DNA of 64,000 nucleotides from Clostridia bacterium (GTDB lineage: Bacteria > Bacillota > Clostridia > Oscillospirales > Butyricicoccaceae), in assembly GCA_017441945.1 (NCBI GenBank), contig JAFSBG010000080.1:1-64000 (forward strand), written 5' to 3'. The notes under the pieces are model-generated. The model did not search any database and was not told where the DNA came from. It saw only the letters and a list, made by a program, of their open reading frames with translations. This document shows, one piece after another, positions 4,172 to 57,330 of this stretch (position 1 is its first letter; the number at the start of each line of letters is the position of its first letter). The position numbers and the translations under genes are program-made.

Positions 4172-4382
4172 TAGATGGTCTTTTGACCATGAGTATCTAT
4201 ATTATAAGTAACCACTGAATAAATCAGAGAATGTTCAGCGGTGAGATATTTTTTCATCAGGCTGACTAAAAGCCGCAGGCAAGGCTTTGTGCCTTAACGA
4301 GGATTTTTGGGCAGAAATGATGGAAAAAGAGCCACCGATGAGCGTGCTATTGATTTAAGAAGGGGTTACAAACTAAAAGGCG
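4172..4382 (+). ncRNA. Structured RNA segment of unknown class upstream of the T-box
   Basis: This stretch has no reading frame but can fold. ATGGTC-tttt-GACCAT lies at 4174-4189. ACCaCTGAA (4211-4219) can pair with TTCAGcGGT (4234-4242). A 10-bp helix TTTTTTCATC (4249-4258) with GATGGAAAAA (4319-4328) would enclose a GGC/GCC hairpin near 4260-4273 and AAGGC-tttgt-GCCTT (4281-4295). It does not match a riboswitch consensus I know. It could be an independent small RNA, a 5' domain of the pheST leader, or chance pairing. Confidence 0.4.
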
Positions 4383-4619
4383 TTGAAAAAGAGAGTAGCA
4401 TAAAAGGCGTGAAGCAGAGAGGGATTGAATGGTGTGATTTTCCCCATGGCCGCTATGTGAAGTTCACTTTGGAGCCCTGTTTTTGAAGTAACAGTAGAGA
4501 ACAGCGTATCCCCTGCGTTAAAGGGTCTGAGTGTCCTGTATTTTTACAGGAAACCAGGGTGGTACCACGGAAACTATGTTTTTTTCGCCCCTGTCTTATG
4601 ACAGGGGCTTATTTTTTAT
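4383..4619 (+). promoter_or_regulatory. T-box riboswitch, tRNA-Phe responsive, controlling pheST
   Basis: Stem I begins at the conserved GAGAGTAGCA (4391-4400) and closes after the specifier region, where TTC at 4463-4465 (a Phe codon) sits in the usual context before ACTTTGGAGC. The hallmark T-box sequence AGGGTGGTACCACGG is at 4556-4570. The competing terminator is the 11-bp hairpin 4587-4608 followed by a T-rich tract. Known mechanism: uncharged tRNA-Phe pairs with the specifier and the T-box, stabilises the antiterminator and turns on the operon. The specifier agrees with the genes downstream. Confidence 0.95.
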
Positions 4620-8474: not shown

Positions 8475-8484
8475 CTAAATCCCC

Positions 8485-8513
8485 AAGCCACTCGTCATGA
8501 GTGGCTTTTTTGT
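8485..8513 (+). terminator. Terminator of ireB
   Basis: AGCCACTC (8486-8493) pairs with GAGTGGCT (8499-8506), followed by TTTTTT. Confidence 0.92.
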
Positions 8514-8912
8514 TGCGGACGAGCAATGCTCGCCCCTACATCTCTACTATGTCATTCTGAGGCATAGCCGAAGAATCTCCACCCTGCAGCGCATAATCCC
8601 GTAGGGGAGGGTCTCTGCGCCCTCCCGCATCCCGCGGTTTGCACGGTACCTGCTGAGACGACTGCCTCCCTTGCCTAATGGCCCAGGCCACCCTCTCTTG
8701 ACCTACGGTCAATTCACCTTGAGGGAGGGGGACCGCTTGCGGTGGAGGGATTTACAACATCCCGCAACCCACAATCTATGTAGGGAATGGTGTCCTCGAC
8801 ATTCCGCGGACGAGCAATGCTCGCCCCTGCAATGGTTTTTCCATGGACAATTTTGTAGGGGAGGGTCTCTGCGCCCTCCCGCATCCAGCCGCTCATACAA
8901 TTCCACACAAAA
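8512..8912. repeat. Cluster of intergenic hairpin repeats (no gene)
   Basis: No credible gene lies in this 400-bp gap; it is built of short palindromic repeat units. A GCGGACGAGCAATGCTCGCC unit is at 8515-8534 and again near 8810-8830. TGTCATTCTGA with GAAGAATCTCC is at 8549-8580. A GTAGGGGAGGG...CCCTCCCGC unit is at 8601-8628 and again at 8857-8883. A module with GAGGGAGGGGGACCGCTTGC is at 8716-8755. A GTAGGGAATG...CATTCCGC unit is near 8779-8807. The same units recur near 11.6, 16.7, 22.8, 29.6 and 31.5 kb. No transposase or target duplication was seen. Confidence 0.8.
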
Positions 8913-22872: not shown

Positions 22873-23018
22873 TGTGATAAATCACATTGAATAGGTTACA
22901 ACCCCTCCGACGGCTAACGCCGCCACCTCCCCTTGCACAGGGGAGGCTACAAGTTTTCTTGCCTCCCTCTGACGAGGGAGGGGGACCACGAAGTGGTGGA
23001 AGGAGAGAACTTATTTAA
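22873..23018. repeat. MITE-like element with inverted ends
   Basis: The palindrome TGTGATaaATCACA (22873-22886) is followed by TTGAATAGGTT (22887-22897), then hairpins in a CTCC/GAGG-rich body, ending GAACTTATTTAA (23007-23018), the reverse complement of TTAAATAAGTTC. It is about 130 bp with near-identical inverted ends and no reading frame. The body includes CCTCCCTCTGACGAGGGAGG and CCACgaaGTGG. Confidence 0.65.
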
Positions 23019-23021
23019 TTC

Positions 23022-23133
23022 GTGACGAAGTCACACCGCATCTGCGCAGCAGTATGTAATCACACGCAGTGTGTATGTAATCGCCTTGCGTATGGCATCA
23101 CCACAGGTGTATGTAATCTGTACCTGCAGTGCA
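23022..23133 (+). repeat. Hairpin-linker array with TATGTAAT linkers
   Basis: Order: GTGACgaaGTCAC (23022-23034), linker ACCGCAT, CTGCgcaGCAG (23042-23052), TATGTAAT, CACACgcaGTGTG (23061-23073), TATGTAAT, CGCcttGCG (23082-23090), TATGGCAT, CACCacaGGTG (23099-23109), TATGTAAT, CTGTACctgcaGTGCA (23118-23133). Palindromes differ in sequence while linkers are nearly constant at 8 nt. It joins a TTGGATAA-headed module at 23134. There is no coding potential. It belongs to the family described under 24388, 29303 and 57171. Confidence 0.75.
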
Positions 23134-23244
23134 TTGGATAAAATTCTCTCCCCCGTCAAAACCTGTGGTTTTGCCACCCCCCTCATCAGAGGGAGGCAAG
23201 GTCTTATGCGTAGGGGAGCTGCTTGCCTCTCCCGTATTATTCAA
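23134..23244. repeat. Short element between two hairpin-linker arrays
   Basis: It begins TTGGATAAAATTCTCTCC (23134), carries AAAACCtgtGGTTTT (23158-23172) and CCCCTCatcaGAGGGAGG, then a GTAGGGGAG...CTCTCCC unit (23210-23234), and ends ATTATTCAA (23236-23244), the complement of TTGAATAAT. The ends are inverted copies of each other. Confidence 0.6.
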
Positions 23245-23335
23245 TGCGCCGCAGGCACCATAATGTTGCACAGCAACAATTCATGCGTTTACGCAATTTA
23301 TGTACGCAGTACAATTCATGGCGCAGCCAATTTAT
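23245..23335 (-). repeat. Hairpin-linker array with ATGAATT/ATAAATT linkers
   Basis: Read on the minus strand from 23335: ATAAATT, GGCtgcGCC, ATGAATT, GTACtgcGTAC, ATAAATT, GCGTaaACGC, ATGAATT, GTTGCtgtGCAAC, ATTATGG, TGCCtgcGGCGCA, then TTGAATAAT. All linkers are exactly 7 nt. The array starts 3 bp after the stop codon of the P1-peptidase gene. Confidence 0.8.
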
Positions 23336-24387: not shown

Positions 24388-24480
24388 ATGAATAGTGTAA
24401 ACACATGGATTATCTTGCGATATGAATTGCACTTTGTGCATGAATTGTTGCAAAGCAACATTGCGGTGTGATAAATCACA
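24388..24480 (+). repeat. Hairpin-linker array with ATGAATT linkers
   Basis: Order: linker ATGAATA, GTGTaaACAC (24395-24404), ATGGATT, ATCttgcGAT (24412-24421), ATGAATT, GCACtttGTGC (24429-24439), ATGAATT, GTTGCaaaGCAAC (24447-24459), ATTGCGG, TGTGATaaATCACA (24467-24480). Every linker is 7 nt and every unit a different palindrome. It begins about 20 bp upstream of the P1-peptidase start codon, so it may be part of that gene's 5' region. Confidence 0.82.
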
Positions 24481-24812
24481 TTGGATTGATTTCGCTCCCT
24501 CCGTCACTTCGTGACACCTCCCTCGACCCGAAGGAGGCAAAAAAGCTGTTAAGCCTCCCATTGTTAAGGGGAGGGGGCGCCGTAAACGGCACTAGCTCCG
24601 CGTCGCCACGAATGGTGGTGGAGGGGTGTAGGGCGTAGCCCGTCTGTTTAATCAAATGCATTGGATAAGTTTTATCTCTCCGTCACATTACACCCCAAAC
24701 AGCAGGCTGTTCGGGGACCCCACAAAATTAAATAGGTGCGGCGGCACTCGCCGCCAGTCGCGCACTTGCGCTCCGTGTGCCACCTCTCCTGAAATAGGAG
24801 AGGCGAGGGGAT
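24481..24812. repeat. CTCCCTC hairpin elements between the P1-peptidase and pucR-like genes
   Basis: No gene. A first element runs from TTGGATTGATTTC (24481) to TTTAATCAA (24647-24655) and includes GTCACttcGTGAC and CCTCC/GGAGG hairpins. After ATGCA a second begins TTGGATAAG (24661) and runs to the stop of the regulator gene; it contains CCCCaAACAG-cagg-CTGTTcGGGG with ACCC following, a form also seen at 11330-11358, and a CTCTCC-tgaaata-GGAGAG hairpin at its end. Confidence 0.65.
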
Positions 24813-28007: not shown

Positions 28008-29300
28008 ATGAAGAACTTCGAAATCGTAAATTACGCTCTTGATTCCCTTAAAAATAAAGGCGCCCAGAAGGCTCAGTGCATCGGCACATTCTCAACAACT
28101 TGGGAGCTTACAGCTCTTTCCGGCAATATCGAGCTTCTGAGAACAATAAATGACGAAACCTCCATCGATATGAAGGGCTACTTCGATAATAAGATGGGCG
28201 GTATCTCCATCAGCACATCGGATCTTTCGGTCATTGACGAGGCTGCACAGAGCTGTCTTGACAACTCCAAGGGTGCTAAAGCAGATGAAACTCCTGCAAT
28301 GAACGAAGAAGCTGTTGTCAAGGTATTCGGCACTCCTGCCAAGGAGCCTGACCTTGAAAAGCTCATCTTCCGCACAAATGAATTCCTCGATAAGGCTCGC
28401 GAAATGTATCCTAATGTGCTCATTCGCCAGATGATCGTGCTTTATACAGTTGAAGAAAGCATTTACAAGAACACATTCGGCGTTGACATCACAGAATACG
28501 AAGATGTTTACTCTGTAAACATCATGTTCTCCGGCTTTGATGGCGACCTTAACTCCTCTTTCAACACTTATGCATTCGCCCTCAAGGACCTTGAAACTCC
28601 AATTATGGACGTTGCTCTCGTTTCCAAGCGCCTCGCCGAAGCTGAAAAGATGGTACACACTCACAAGTATCCTGAAAAGGTTGTGGGTGCAATGATTGTC
28701 ACACCACACTGCCTCAAGGACTTCCTCGGTCAGCTTATGAATGCTTATGCTTCTCCTAACGCTCTCGTTGGCGGCGGCAGCAAGTGGCAGAATGCTTTGG
28801 ACACAAAGGTAGCCTGCGATAATTTCAGCCTTTACAGCAAGCCACTTGATGAAAATATGGCTTATAACAACCATTACACATCTGACGGCTTTATCGCAGA
28901 AAATCAGGCTATCATCGAAAACGGCGTGCTCAAGGGTATGTTTGCCGACCATTACACAGCAGCAAAGACAGGTCTTCCACGCAGAAAGTCGGGCGGACGC
29001 TTCTTTGTAATTCCAAAGGGCGACAAAACTCTGGACGAAATGATCGCATCTGTCGAAGACGGCATCATCATCAACCGCTTCTCGGGCGGTCACGCAGGTG
29101 CATCGGGCGACCTTTCGGGTATTTCCAAGAACAGCTTCTACATCAAGAACGGCAAGCTGGACGAGGCTGCAAGAGAAACTATGATTTCTGTCAACCTTTC
29201 CGACCTGCTTATGAACATTGATGCAATTTCTGTTGAAACTGTAAACGATGGTTCTTCCGATCTGCCATACATCGCAGTAAAGAACGTGACTATTCTTTAG
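28008..29300 (+). CDS. TldE/PmbA-like metalloprotease partner subunit
   Basis: 430 residues, no HExxxH motif, as expected for the non-catalytic TldE partner. Conserved parts include SSFNTYAFALKDLETPIMDV, the GGGSKWQNALD region and the C-terminal FSGGHAGASGDLSGISKNSF typical of the family. AGGAGG lies at the end of the tldD-like gene. No terminator follows; a hairpin-linker array begins 2 bp after the stop codon, which could serve as the mRNA 3' end. Confidence 0.92.
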   Translation: MKNFEIVNYALDSLKNKGAQKAQCIGTFSTTWELTALSGNIELLRTINDETSIDMKGYFDNKMGGISISTSDLSVIDEAAQSCLDNSKGAKADETPAMNEEAVVKVFGTPAKEPDLEKLIFRTNEFLDKAREMYPNVLIRQMIVLYTVEESIYKNTFGVDITEYEDVYSVNIMFSGFDGDLNSSFNTYAFALKDLETPIMDVALVSKRLAEAEKMVHTHKYPEKVVGAMIVTPHCLKDFLGQLMNAYASPNALVGGGSKWQNALDTKVACDNFSLYSKPLDENMAYNNHYTSDGFIAENQAIIENGVLKGMFADHYTAAKTGLPRRKSGGRFFVIPKGDKTLDEMIASVEDGIIINRFSGGHAGASGDLSGISKNSFYIKNGKLDEAARETMISVNLSDLLMNIDAISVETVNDGSSDLPYIAVKNVTIL

Positions 29301-29302
29301 TT

Positions 29303-29416
29303 GCACTATCGTGCGCGATATGTGCTTACGCACACGATATATTTGCTTTGCAAATTCGATATTCGGCACAGCCGAGCGATATGTTCCTGCGGAACGTTAA
29401 TGTGTGACAAGTCACA
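29303..29416 (+). repeat. Hairpin-linker array with NCGATAT linkers
   Basis: Order: GCACtatcGTGC (29303-29314), GCGATAT, GTGCttacGCAC (29322-29333), ACGATAT, ATTTGCtttGCAAAT (29341-29355), TCGATAT, TCGGCacaGCCGA (29363-29375), GCGATAT, GTTCCtgcGGAAC (29383-29395), GTTAATG, TGTGACaaGTCACA (29403-29416). Five linkers of exactly 7 nt and six unrelated perfect palindromes. Arm lengths vary from 4 to 6 bp, loops from 2 to 4 nt. Confidence 0.88.
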
Positions 29417-29572
29417 TTGATTAAAATCACTCCCTCAGTCACACTTTGTGTGCCAGCTCCCTCGTCTGATGGAGCCATGAAACAAATTAACGCAAATCTG
29501 CTTGCCTCCCTCTGCCGAGGGAGGTGGATTGCGTAGCAAGACGGGGGGAGAGATATTATATTCAATTGATTT
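29417..29572. repeat. MITE-like element with two inverted CTCCCTC modules
   Basis: It starts TTGATTAAAATCACTCCC (29417) and ends GGGAGAGATATTATATTCAA (to about 29565), so its ends are inverted repeats. The left module reads ACTCCCTCAGTC, ACACtttGTGT, GCCAGCTCCCTC...; the right module is the same design on the other strand (GCCTCCCTCtgccGAGGGAGG, GATTGCgtaGCAAGAC). About 150 bp, no reading frame. Confidence 0.7.
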
Positions 29573-51564: not shown

Positions 51565-51900
51565 GGTATTCCTCCATAATGTTTTTCGTTGTTTTTTATT
51601 TATTGCGACACCATACATGGCGGAAAATCTGCAACGCTTCCGTGTGTATCACGGTCTGGGCATAAATCAAGCCGCATAATATCATACTGATACTGTCGGC
51701 TTTCACAAATTACGCAGGTTGGTCTCTTGTTCAGTTATGTGGCTTAAGGACATAGTCATCAGTTCCACAAGGTTTTTATAAGGTACTCTTTGCGTTCAAT
51801 TTTCCAGCCGCCCGATTGTCGGACCTACTCCGTCGAAGTTACCTGCTTTAAGCAGCAATCTCCGACTTCATCGCATTTTTCTTGCGCCTTTCTTTAGCGC
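51565..51900 (-). promoter_or_regulatory. Long structured leader of the S10 superoperon
   Basis: About 335 nt between the promoter and rpsJ. Visible hairpins: CTGCTTTAAGCAG (51843-51855) and an AAGCCG...CGGCTT stem with inner TATCA/TGATA pairing (51669-51702). No T-box or known riboswitch motif. In E. coli L4 controls this operon through its leader; here the class of leader is not identified, so autoregulation is inferred only from length and position. Confidence 0.5.
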
Positions 51901-57170: not shown

Positions 57171-57264
57171 ATGAATTGACTTCGTCATGAATTGGCAAAG
57201 CCATGAATTGCATAAATGCATGAATTGTTTGCCGTCAGCAAACATTATGGTGTGACACGTCACA
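57171..57264 (+). repeat. Hairpin-linker array with ATGAATT linkers
   Basis: Order: ATGAATT, GACttcGTC (57178-57186), ATGAATT, GGCaaaGCC (57194-57202), ATGAATT, GCATaaATGC (57210-57219), ATGAATT, GTTTGCcgtcaGCAAAC (57227-57243), ATTATGG, TGTGACacGTCACA (57251-57264). Four identical 7-nt linkers and five different palindromes. It starts 25 bp upstream of the minD start codon and runs away from the gene. Confidence 0.88.
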
Positions 57265-57330
57265 TTAAATAAGTTCACTCCCTCAGTCAAAACCTCTGGT
57301 TTTGCCAGCTCCCTCGTCTGAGGGAGCCAG
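57265..57330 (+). repeat. CTCCCTC hairpin module following the array
   Basis: TTAAATAAGTTCACTCCC (57265), AGTC, AAAACCtctGGTTTT (57289-57303), GCCAGCTCCCTCGTC, then TGAGGGAGCCAG. The layout is the same as at 23134, 24481 and 29417, with different hairpin arms. No right-hand inverted end was found. Confidence 0.75.

What the first reader, a model, noticed from the sequence alone, without database searches (positions are those of the whole stretch)
29303..29416. Hairpin-linker array C: six unrelated palindromes in register with a fixed 7-nt NCGATAT linker
Seen directly: every linker is exactly 7 nt (GCGATAT, ACGATAT, TCGATAT, GCGATAT, GTTAATG) while the palindromes between them share no sequence (GCACtatcGTGC, GTGCttacGCAC, ATTTGCtttGCAAAT, TCGGCacaGCCGA, GTTCCtgcGGAAC, TGTGACaaGTCACA). 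This is the reverse of a CRISPR layout: the spacers are self-complementary and the repeats are tiny. It suggests selection on, or a mechanism that makes, hairpins at fixed spacing rather than a given sequence. It begins 2 bp after the TldE-like stop codon, so it could shape the mRNA 3' end. I know of no named element with this design.
Basis: partly seen in the sequence, partly recalled or inferred. Interest (0 to 1): 0.85.

Follow-up and report, generated by a model that had tools for sequence, protein, structure and literature searches.

The report
Hairpin arrays paired with IVP genes
The six little hairpins behind the tldE-like gene are one of dozens of gene-less copies, in this genome, of a widespread repeat in gut bacteria whose fixed 7-letter spacer is matched to a small protein of unknown function (the 23S rRNA 'IVP' or S23 family), which gives this orphan protein family a testable nucleic-acid partner.

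Summary
In detail: six perfect hairpins with unrelated stems stand in register on 7-nt linkers at 29303-29416. It is a complete copy of a repeat with about 33 copies in this genome and relatives across the order; hits outside Clostridia lack the hairpins. Within a unit the outer four stem bases pair in 76% of cases, against 4% when arms of different units are combined. Loops are C-TNC-G or C-TNNC-G on the linker strand, so C-GNA-G or C-GNNA-G on the other strand (250 against 1), the rule for exceptionally stable DNA mini-hairpins. The key result is the partner. Full copies carry a gene for a four-helix-bundle 'IVP' protein (PF05635). 49 of 70 IVP loci have a hairpin array within 600 nt (47 upstream of the gene); 42 control loci have none. 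Linker sequence follows IVP clade (6 changes on the tree against 24 shuffled) across many host families. Outside the order IVP genes are flanked by plain 7-nt tandem repeats. This genome's own IVP gene has the linker of another array in the window. Best reading: a gene-less copy of a horizontally spreading IVP element whose 7-mer is the recognition unit. Binding and the movement mechanism are inferred.

The parts
29303..29314 (+). hairpin 1 GCACtatcGTGC, starting 2 nt after the tldE-like stop codon
29315..29321 (+). linker GCGATAT
   Evidence: GCGATAT in all four places in the orthologous array of a sister species
29322..29333 (+). hairpin 2 GTGCttacGCAC
29334..29340 (+). linker ACGATAT (GCGATAT in sister species G002)
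29341..29355 (+). hairpin 3 ATTTGCtttGCAAAT
29356..29362 (+). linker TCGATAT (GCGATAT in G002)
29363..29375 (+). hairpin 4 TCGGCacaGCCGA (TCAGCataGCCGA in G002)
29376..29382 (+). linker GCGATAT
29383..29395 (+). hairpin 5 GTTCCtgcGGAAC, a common stem type at this position in the genome
29396..29402 (+). fifth linker GTTAATG, member of a position-specific set (TTGTGG, TTGCGG, TAAAGG, CTGATG)
29403..29423 (+). terminal module: hairpin 6 TGTGACaaGTCACA plus TTGATTA, a type shared by copies of all three linker classes
29424..29555 (+). adjacent MITE-like repeat (CTCCCTCaGTC ... GACGGGGGGAG), one of several kinds that follow arrays
   Evidence: many DNA hits in sister genomes; limits approximate
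23011..23118 (-). array with linker GATTACATA (TATGTAATC on + strand), the linker of this genome's own IVP gene at G000:C110:3867-4166; limits approximate
23238..23335 (-). array with linker ATGAATT; limits approximate
24395..24487 (+). array with linker ATGAATT, ending TTGCGG-TGTGATaaATCACA-TTGGATT; limits approximate
57171..57271 (+). array with linker ATGAATT, ending TTATGG-TGTGACacGTCACA-TTAAATA; limits approximate

Best explanation
The array is a gene-less (non-autonomous) copy of a horizontally spreading repetitive element whose fuller copies consist of a hairpin array plus a gene for an IVP (23S rRNA intervening sequence, S23) four-helix-bundle protein. The 7-nt linker is the sequence-specific unit: each IVP clade goes with its own linker, and the protein most likely binds repeated 7-mers. 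The hairpins are interchangeable spacers that hold successive 7-mers apart. Any stem serves if it folds with a tight C-GNA-G or C-GNNA-G turn on the ATATCGC strand, which points to single-stranded DNA (less surely RNA) as the active form. Hairpins change by single substitutions, some compensated, and by replacement, gain or loss of whole units at the linkers, as expected of template switching or gene conversion between copies. Shown: the family, the arm pairing, the strand-specific loop rule, the IVP adjacency, the clade-linker match, the spread across host families and into phage-like contigs. Inferred: binding of the linker by IVP, the DNA level, the copying mechanism, absence of a host function.
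For: About 33 arrays in the genome. Arms pair within units 76% against 4%. Loops T..C against G..A: 151:1 (3 nt) and 99:0 (4 nt), background hairpins 162:157; GNA/GNNA are the loops of exceptionally stable DNA mini-hairpins (PMC4686876); other-strand tetraloops are GNRA 58 and GNYA 41, no strong RNA-type GNRA preference. IVP identity: PF05635 E 5e-22, TIGR02436 E 1e-24, AlphaFold pLDDT 90 matching 2rld, 2gsc and the DGR protein Avd. Arrays within 600 nt of 49/70 IVP genes, 47 of them upstream of the gene, and 16/20 in a separate PF05635 search, against 0/42 control loci. Linker class on the IVP tree: 6 changes against shuffled mean 24.4, 0 of 200 as low, clades spanning many host families. Own IVP gene carries the GATTACATA linker found in the window; sister species G002 carries a GCGATAT IVP between arrays, absent at the matching place in this genome. 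Outside the order IVP genes are flanked by plain 7-nt tandem repeats: period 7 best in 18/25 and 8/9 loci against 3/38 controls.
Against: No binding or movement was measured. 21 of 70 IVP loci showed no array by this scan (some, such as L439 and L448, have imperfect ones). No GCGATAT-class IVP gene was found in this 92%-complete assembly, so the copies here may be relics. In sister species stems drift about as fast as flanks (3.8% against 3.5%), with 8 of 11 changed pairs altered on one side only. IVP has no catalytic domain, so it cannot move DNA alone. Arrays sit mainly upstream of IVP genes, as an RNA leader would. Clear target duplications are few (19% of flank pairs share 9 nt or more against 3.4%, and some of those are tandem copies).
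Confidence: 0.7

Rival explanations
1. The arrays are RNA elements: leader sequences through which IVP proteins regulate their own mRNA, dispersed copies being sponges or mRNA-end structures. IVP is an RNA-binding protein and the 7-mers are its unpaired RNA sites between hairpins.
For: 47 of 49 IVP-linked arrays lie upstream of the gene, often with the ribosome site just after the last linker. The IVP fold resembles Avd, which is part of the DGR reverse-transcriptase RNP. rRNA IVS are excised as RNA (PMC4990558).
Against: Dispersed arrays have nearly random orientation to neighbouring genes. Tetraloops show no strong GNRA preference and triloops dominate. Outside the order the arrays are plain heptamer repeats on both sides of the gene.
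Confidence: 0.3
2. The elements are copied by a reverse transcriptase in trans, IVP acting like Avd as the adaptor that brings structured element RNA to the enzyme (a SINE-like arrangement).
For: Structural match of IVP to Avd (4dwl) and to DGR RNP subunits (8ub7, 8ube); PF05635 resembles Avd (PMC10053308); IVP has no catalytic domain of its own.
Against: No reverse transcriptase was seen next to the arrays looked at; association with RT genes was not tested genome-wide.
Confidence: 0.15
3. A REP/BIME-like system: arrays are substrates of REP-associated tyrosine (Y1/RAYT) transposases.
For: Strand-specific hairpins with a constant tag recall REPs; the genome has several RAYT-like genes (NF047646 E 7e-17).
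Against: 0 of 42 RAYT/Y1 loci have an array. RAYT presence does not go with arrays across 295 genomes. 10 of 16 further array-bearing genomes have no Y1 gene. No GTAG-like tag.
Confidence: 0.05
4. A purely mutational product: template switching at quasi-palindromes keeps making and mending hairpins, with no protein partner and no selection.
For: Template switching can create and mend perfect stems (PMC8794818). Three base pairs changed on both sides and stayed paired, about 0.1 expected. Whole-hairpin replacement occurs.
Against: Does not explain the constant linker, the match of linker to IVP clade, the IVP adjacency or the spread across host families. It may well be the way hairpins turn over inside the element.
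Confidence: 0.07

Closest known systems
23S rRNA intervening sequences (IVS) encoding S23p/IVP (Coxiella, Leptospira)
   Same: Same protein family (PF05635); small element with inverted ends, described as selfish and horizontally acquired, mechanism unknown (PMC4990558)
   Different: The elements here lie between protein genes, hold multi-hairpin arrays on class-specific 7-mers, and most copies lack the gene
Heptamer tandem repeats (cyanobacterial STRRs; TAACTGA repeats of Beggiatoaceae, PMC4679880)
   Same: 7-nt intergenic unit; patchy, apparently horizontal distribution; IVP genes on Nostoc, Planktothrix, Treponema and Bernardetia plasmids are flanked by such repeats
   Different: There the 7-mers touch; here a hairpin stands between them. 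The TAACTGA paper does not mention IVP or S23
REP/BIME/REPIN with RAYT
   Same: Many intergenic palindromes with a constant tag; strand asymmetry
   Different: No link to Y1 genes; stems unrelated between units; 7-nt tag on both sides of each hairpin; IVP partner instead
Avd of diversity-generating retroelements
   Same: Same fold as the IVP partner
   Different: Only about 14% identical; no DGR next to the loci examined
CRISPR arrays
   Same: Regular alternation of constant and variable parts
   Different: Variable parts are self-complementary, repeats are 7 nt

Membership tests
23S rRNA IVS | Encodes a PF05635 (IVP/S23) protein | tested here: met
   Met by the fuller copies; the window copy itself has no gene
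23S rRNA IVS | Located inside a 23S rRNA gene | tested here: not met
   Window copy follows a tldE-like gene; other copies lie between protein genes
23S rRNA IVS | Excised from RNA by RNase III | not testable with these tools
   Needs RNA data
REP/RAYT | RAYT or Y1 transposase gene flanked by the repeats | tested here: not met
   0/42 loci; no genome-level association
REP/RAYT | GTAG/GTGG or CGTC tag at hairpin foot | tested here: not met
   Tag is NCGATAT, ATGAATT, GATTACATA and others
STRR-type heptamer repeat | Directly adjacent 7-nt tandem units | tested here: not met
   Hairpins separate the 7-mers in Oscillospirales-type loci; period 7 best in only 3/66 loci there against 26/34 IVP loci elsewhere
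STRR-type heptamer repeat | 7-nt repeat unit (association with IVP genes is new here, not part of the published definition) | tested here: met
CRISPR | Repeats of 23-50 nt and non-palindromic spacers | tested here: not met
Known Rfam RNA | Match above a family's gathering score | tested here: not met
   Only a T-box and an S10 leader elsewhere in the window
MITE | Terminal inverted repeats and target site duplication | tested here: inconclusive
   Double copies have inverted halves (about 181 nt); 9-nt or longer flank repeats in 19% against 3.4%; half copies such as this one lack inverted ends

The most novel reading that the evidence does not exclude
IVP proteins are sequence-specific 7-mer binders that drive a new class of mobile DNA without a catalytic transposase, using host replication or repair. 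Insertion copies a stretch of the target back on itself, so each outer hairpin is a folded-back copy of the insertion site. A phage-like copy (L310) fits: its outer hairpin's 5' arm belongs to an 18-nt direct repeat flanking the element, and the 3' arm is its reverse complement. Arrays would then record past insertions, which would explain why no two hairpins are alike.
Probability: 0.2. Interest if true: 0.95.

Novelty: categorically new. Interest (0 to 1): 0.86.

Why it matters
IVP/S23 proteins have had a solved fold and no function for years, and heptamer repeats have had no partner. The data tie the two together and predict, clade by clade, which 7-mer each protein should recognise, so the question becomes a simple binding assay. 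It may also explain why IVP genes turn up in cas loci (PMC3936711) and in a CRISPR-association screen (PMC10910872): they insert between genes, for example between cas2 and cas1 on an Anabaena plasmid, and their arrays look regular; that last point is inference. Free hairpins on fixed spacers are also a natural record of how palindromes arise and are repaired. The library searched is open-access only, so earlier notice elsewhere cannot be excluded.

Tried and rejected
(1) RAYT/Y1 transposases as partners: first attractive because several RAYT-like genes sit in this genome, rejected on proximity and co-occurrence. (2) Rfam families: none. (4) Pattern hits outside Clostridia and most viral hits: no hairpins between the 7-mers, many with a 21-nt period as in coding repeats; an archaeal hit (L223) is a plain repeat, not hairpins. 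(5) RNA 3'-end role: weakened by near-random gene orientation. (6) Linker more constrained than stems: 1.8% against 3.8%, but counts are small (7 and 14 changes), so not claimed. (7) Gene calls around arrays were crude ORF picks; 10 of 41 arrays fell inside long ORFs, spurious or real, and were left out. (8) Literature on IVP with hairpin arrays: none found.

Full report
CHECKING THE OBSERVATION. The sequence at 29303-29416 is as described: GCACtatcGTGC, GTGCttacGCAC, ATTTGCtttGCAAAT, TCGGCacaGCCGA, GTTCCtgcGGAAC, TGTGACaaGTCACA, separated by GCGATAT, ACGATAT, TCGATAT, GCGATAT, GTTAATG. The tldE-like ORF ends at 29300. Forty first-order Markov versions of the window gave chains of at most 4 hairpins spaced 5-8 nt; the window has 6.

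A GENOME-WIDE FAMILY. A three-linker pattern finds 59 matches in the 2.26-Mb genome and none for the reversed control. Aligned, these are about 33 arrays with one plan: hairpin 1, then three more hairpins each after GCGATAT, a fourth GCGATAT and hairpin 5, a fifth linker of the type TTGTGG, TTAATG or TAAAGG, a terminal hairpin such as TGTGAC..GTCACA, and TTTAATA or TTGATTA. The window array is a full copy. Arrays with linker ATGAATT (at least 12 in the genome) and GATTACATA share the same 3' module. Double copies of about 181 nt, in which a GCGATAT half faces an ATATCGC half so that linkers can pair, are common in other families of the order.

DISTRIBUTION. The pattern is in 12 of 60 relatives and 35 of 295 genomes over the order, patchily, with no control match. 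In a named genome collection 85 of 118 stretches passed a hairpin test, nearly all from gut or rumen Clostridia; matches from other phyla were mostly without hairpins. Two phage-like contigs carry arrays between genes (L310, L342).

THE HAIRPINS. In this genome the outer four bases of an inter-linker segment pair in 76% of cases, against 4.0% when arms come from different units; figures for sister species and other families are alike. The loop is mostly 3 nt, closed by C-G. On the linker strand it is T..C in 151 and G..A in 1 (3 nt), 99 and 0 (4 nt); hairpins in general in the same loci are symmetric, 162 to 157. So the other strand carries C-GNA-G and C-GNNA-G turns, the motifs of exceptionally stable DNA mini-hairpins (PMC4686876). 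The near equality of GNRA (58) and GNYA (41) fits DNA better than RNA (inference).

TURNOVER. Orthologous arrays in two sister species differ by 1.8% in linkers, 3.8% in stems, 3.0% in loops and 3.5% in nearby flank; three stem pairs changed on both sides and stayed paired, eight changed on one side. At one locus two adjacent hairpins are wholly replaced while linkers and the other hairpins are kept (L024 against L055: GTGCttacGCAC to AACGCttcGCGTT, ACTGCtgaGCAGT to GTCCataGGAC). Whole units are lost or gained (L016/L401, L066/L077). At three loci the array belongs to another linker class in the sister species (L064/L412, L009/L406, L024/L405). The window array is shared with G002, nearly unchanged, and survives as a truncated remnant in G001.

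THE PARTNER. Transposases were tried first. RAYT-like Y1 genes exist here but do not go with arrays. Full-length copies in other families, however, are in several cases followed by a small gene of the IVP family: PF05635 E 5e-22, TIGR02436 E 1e-24, solved relative 2rld. Its predicted structure (mean pLDDT 89.7) matches 2rld, 2gsc and, more weakly, Avd of diversity-generating retroelements. An order-wide search found IVP genes in 128 of 295 genomes. Of the best-scoring loci the first 13 all have NCGATAT hairpin units beside the gene. Over 70 loci, 49 have a tandem hairpin array with a repeated 6-mer within 600 nt, 47 of them upstream of the gene; 42 RAYT and IS200-type loci, scanned alike, have none. 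The seeds of that search were chosen because they touch arrays. This bias is met by the lower-ranked hits with other linkers and by an independent PF05635 search in five genomes (16 of 20).

PROTEIN AND LINKER MATCH. Linkers read CGATAT, GTGATAT, TGAAAT, ATGAATT, CTAAAT and others, with loops T..C in 83 and G..A in 0 cases (the orientation was chosen partly by this loop rule, so the figure is not independent). On a tree of 72 IVP proteins the five main linker classes need 6 changes (least possible 4) against 24.4 when shuffled (0 of 200 as low). The ATGAATT clade is one side of a branch, and clades mix host families. The tree has few columns and many weak forks. This genome's one detected IVP gene (C110:3867-4166) has upstream arrays with GTATGTAATC/GATTACATA, the linker of the window array at about 23011-23118. 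In sister species G002 a GCGATAT-class IVP gene stands between arrays at a place where this genome has an array but no gene.

BEYOND THE ORDER. IVP genes on plasmids of Nostoc, Planktothrix, Treponema and Bernardetia are flanked on both sides by plain 7-nt tandem repeats. Period 7 is the best period in 8 of 9 of these and in 18 of 25 IVP loci of the same phylum outside the order, against 3 of 38 controls. Hence the 7-mer is the common part; the hairpins between the 7-mers are the feature of the clostridial elements.

HOW IT MOST LIKELY WORKS. Shown: a repeat family with free hairpins on fixed 7-mers, strand-specific tight loops, an IVP gene in fuller copies, linker matched to IVP clade, horizontal spread. 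Inferred: IVP binds its 7-mer; hairpins act as rigid spacers in single-stranded DNA; copies spread with help of IVP and host enzymes or a reverse transcriptase in trans; hairpins turn over by template switching or conversion between copies. Template switching is known to make and mend hairpins (PMC8794818). Flanking direct repeats of 9 nt or more occur in 19% of double copies against 3.4% for mismatched flanks. In phage-like copy L310 an 18-nt direct repeat flanks the element, and the outer hairpin looks like a fold-back copy of that target; this is a lead only.

COMPARISON WITH WHAT IS KNOWN. rRNA IVS are called selfish elements with an S23p ORF of unknown function (PMC4990558). Heptamer repeats are known without a partner (PMC4679880). 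IVP genes have been counted in cas loci (PMC3936711) and named in a CRISPR-association screen (PMC10910872). No paper found here joins IVP with heptamers or hairpin arrays, but the library is open-access only.

VERDICT. The element family and the IVP-linker match are well supported; binding, the acting nucleic acid and the way of movement are open. Limits: draft genomes, semi-automatic linker calls, 21 of 70 IVP loci without a detected array, few target duplications.

Noticed in passing
window 29424-29555; 8480-8890: Abundant MITE-like repeats (CTCCCTC.GTC...; GTAGGGGCGAGCATTGCTCGCCCGC...) follow arrays or fill other intergenic regions; arrays are followed by several different kinds of them.
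   Followed up: partly
window 4374-4595 (+); 51816-51879 (-): T-box leader (E 1.2e-25) and S10-Clostridia ribosomal protein leader (E 3.2e-5) by Rfam.
   Followed up: no
L136, L137, L140-L142 (G000, G002): RAYT-like Y1 transposase genes sit directly after or between intrinsic-terminator-like hairpins, in L136 with nearly the same terminator sequence on both sides.
   Followed up: partly
L030, L061, L067, L068 (G000): A recurring unit GCGATAT-ATAAAT-GCGATAT in which a hairpin is replaced by the six bases ATAAAT, at different positions of different arrays.
   Followed up: no
L457, L446: IVP gene flanked by direct repeats of a half-array, as if it could excise or duplicate by recombination.
   Followed up: no
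L538 (Anabaena plasmid), L531 (Planktothrix plasmid), L535 (Monoglobus plasmid): IVP genes lie between cas2 and cas1, between a DISARM gene and an MmeI-type gene, and between hsdS and hsdR.
   Followed up: partly
L553, L555 (same phylum): IVP loci with an 11-nt instead of a 7-nt tandem period in the flank.
   Followed up: no
L418, L420-L422, L092 (several families): Similar double arrays across host families share about 45 nt after the last linker (such as GGCATCTAAATCGTTCACTGATTTTATAATG); a promoter-like TATAATG also precedes several copies.
   Followed up: partly
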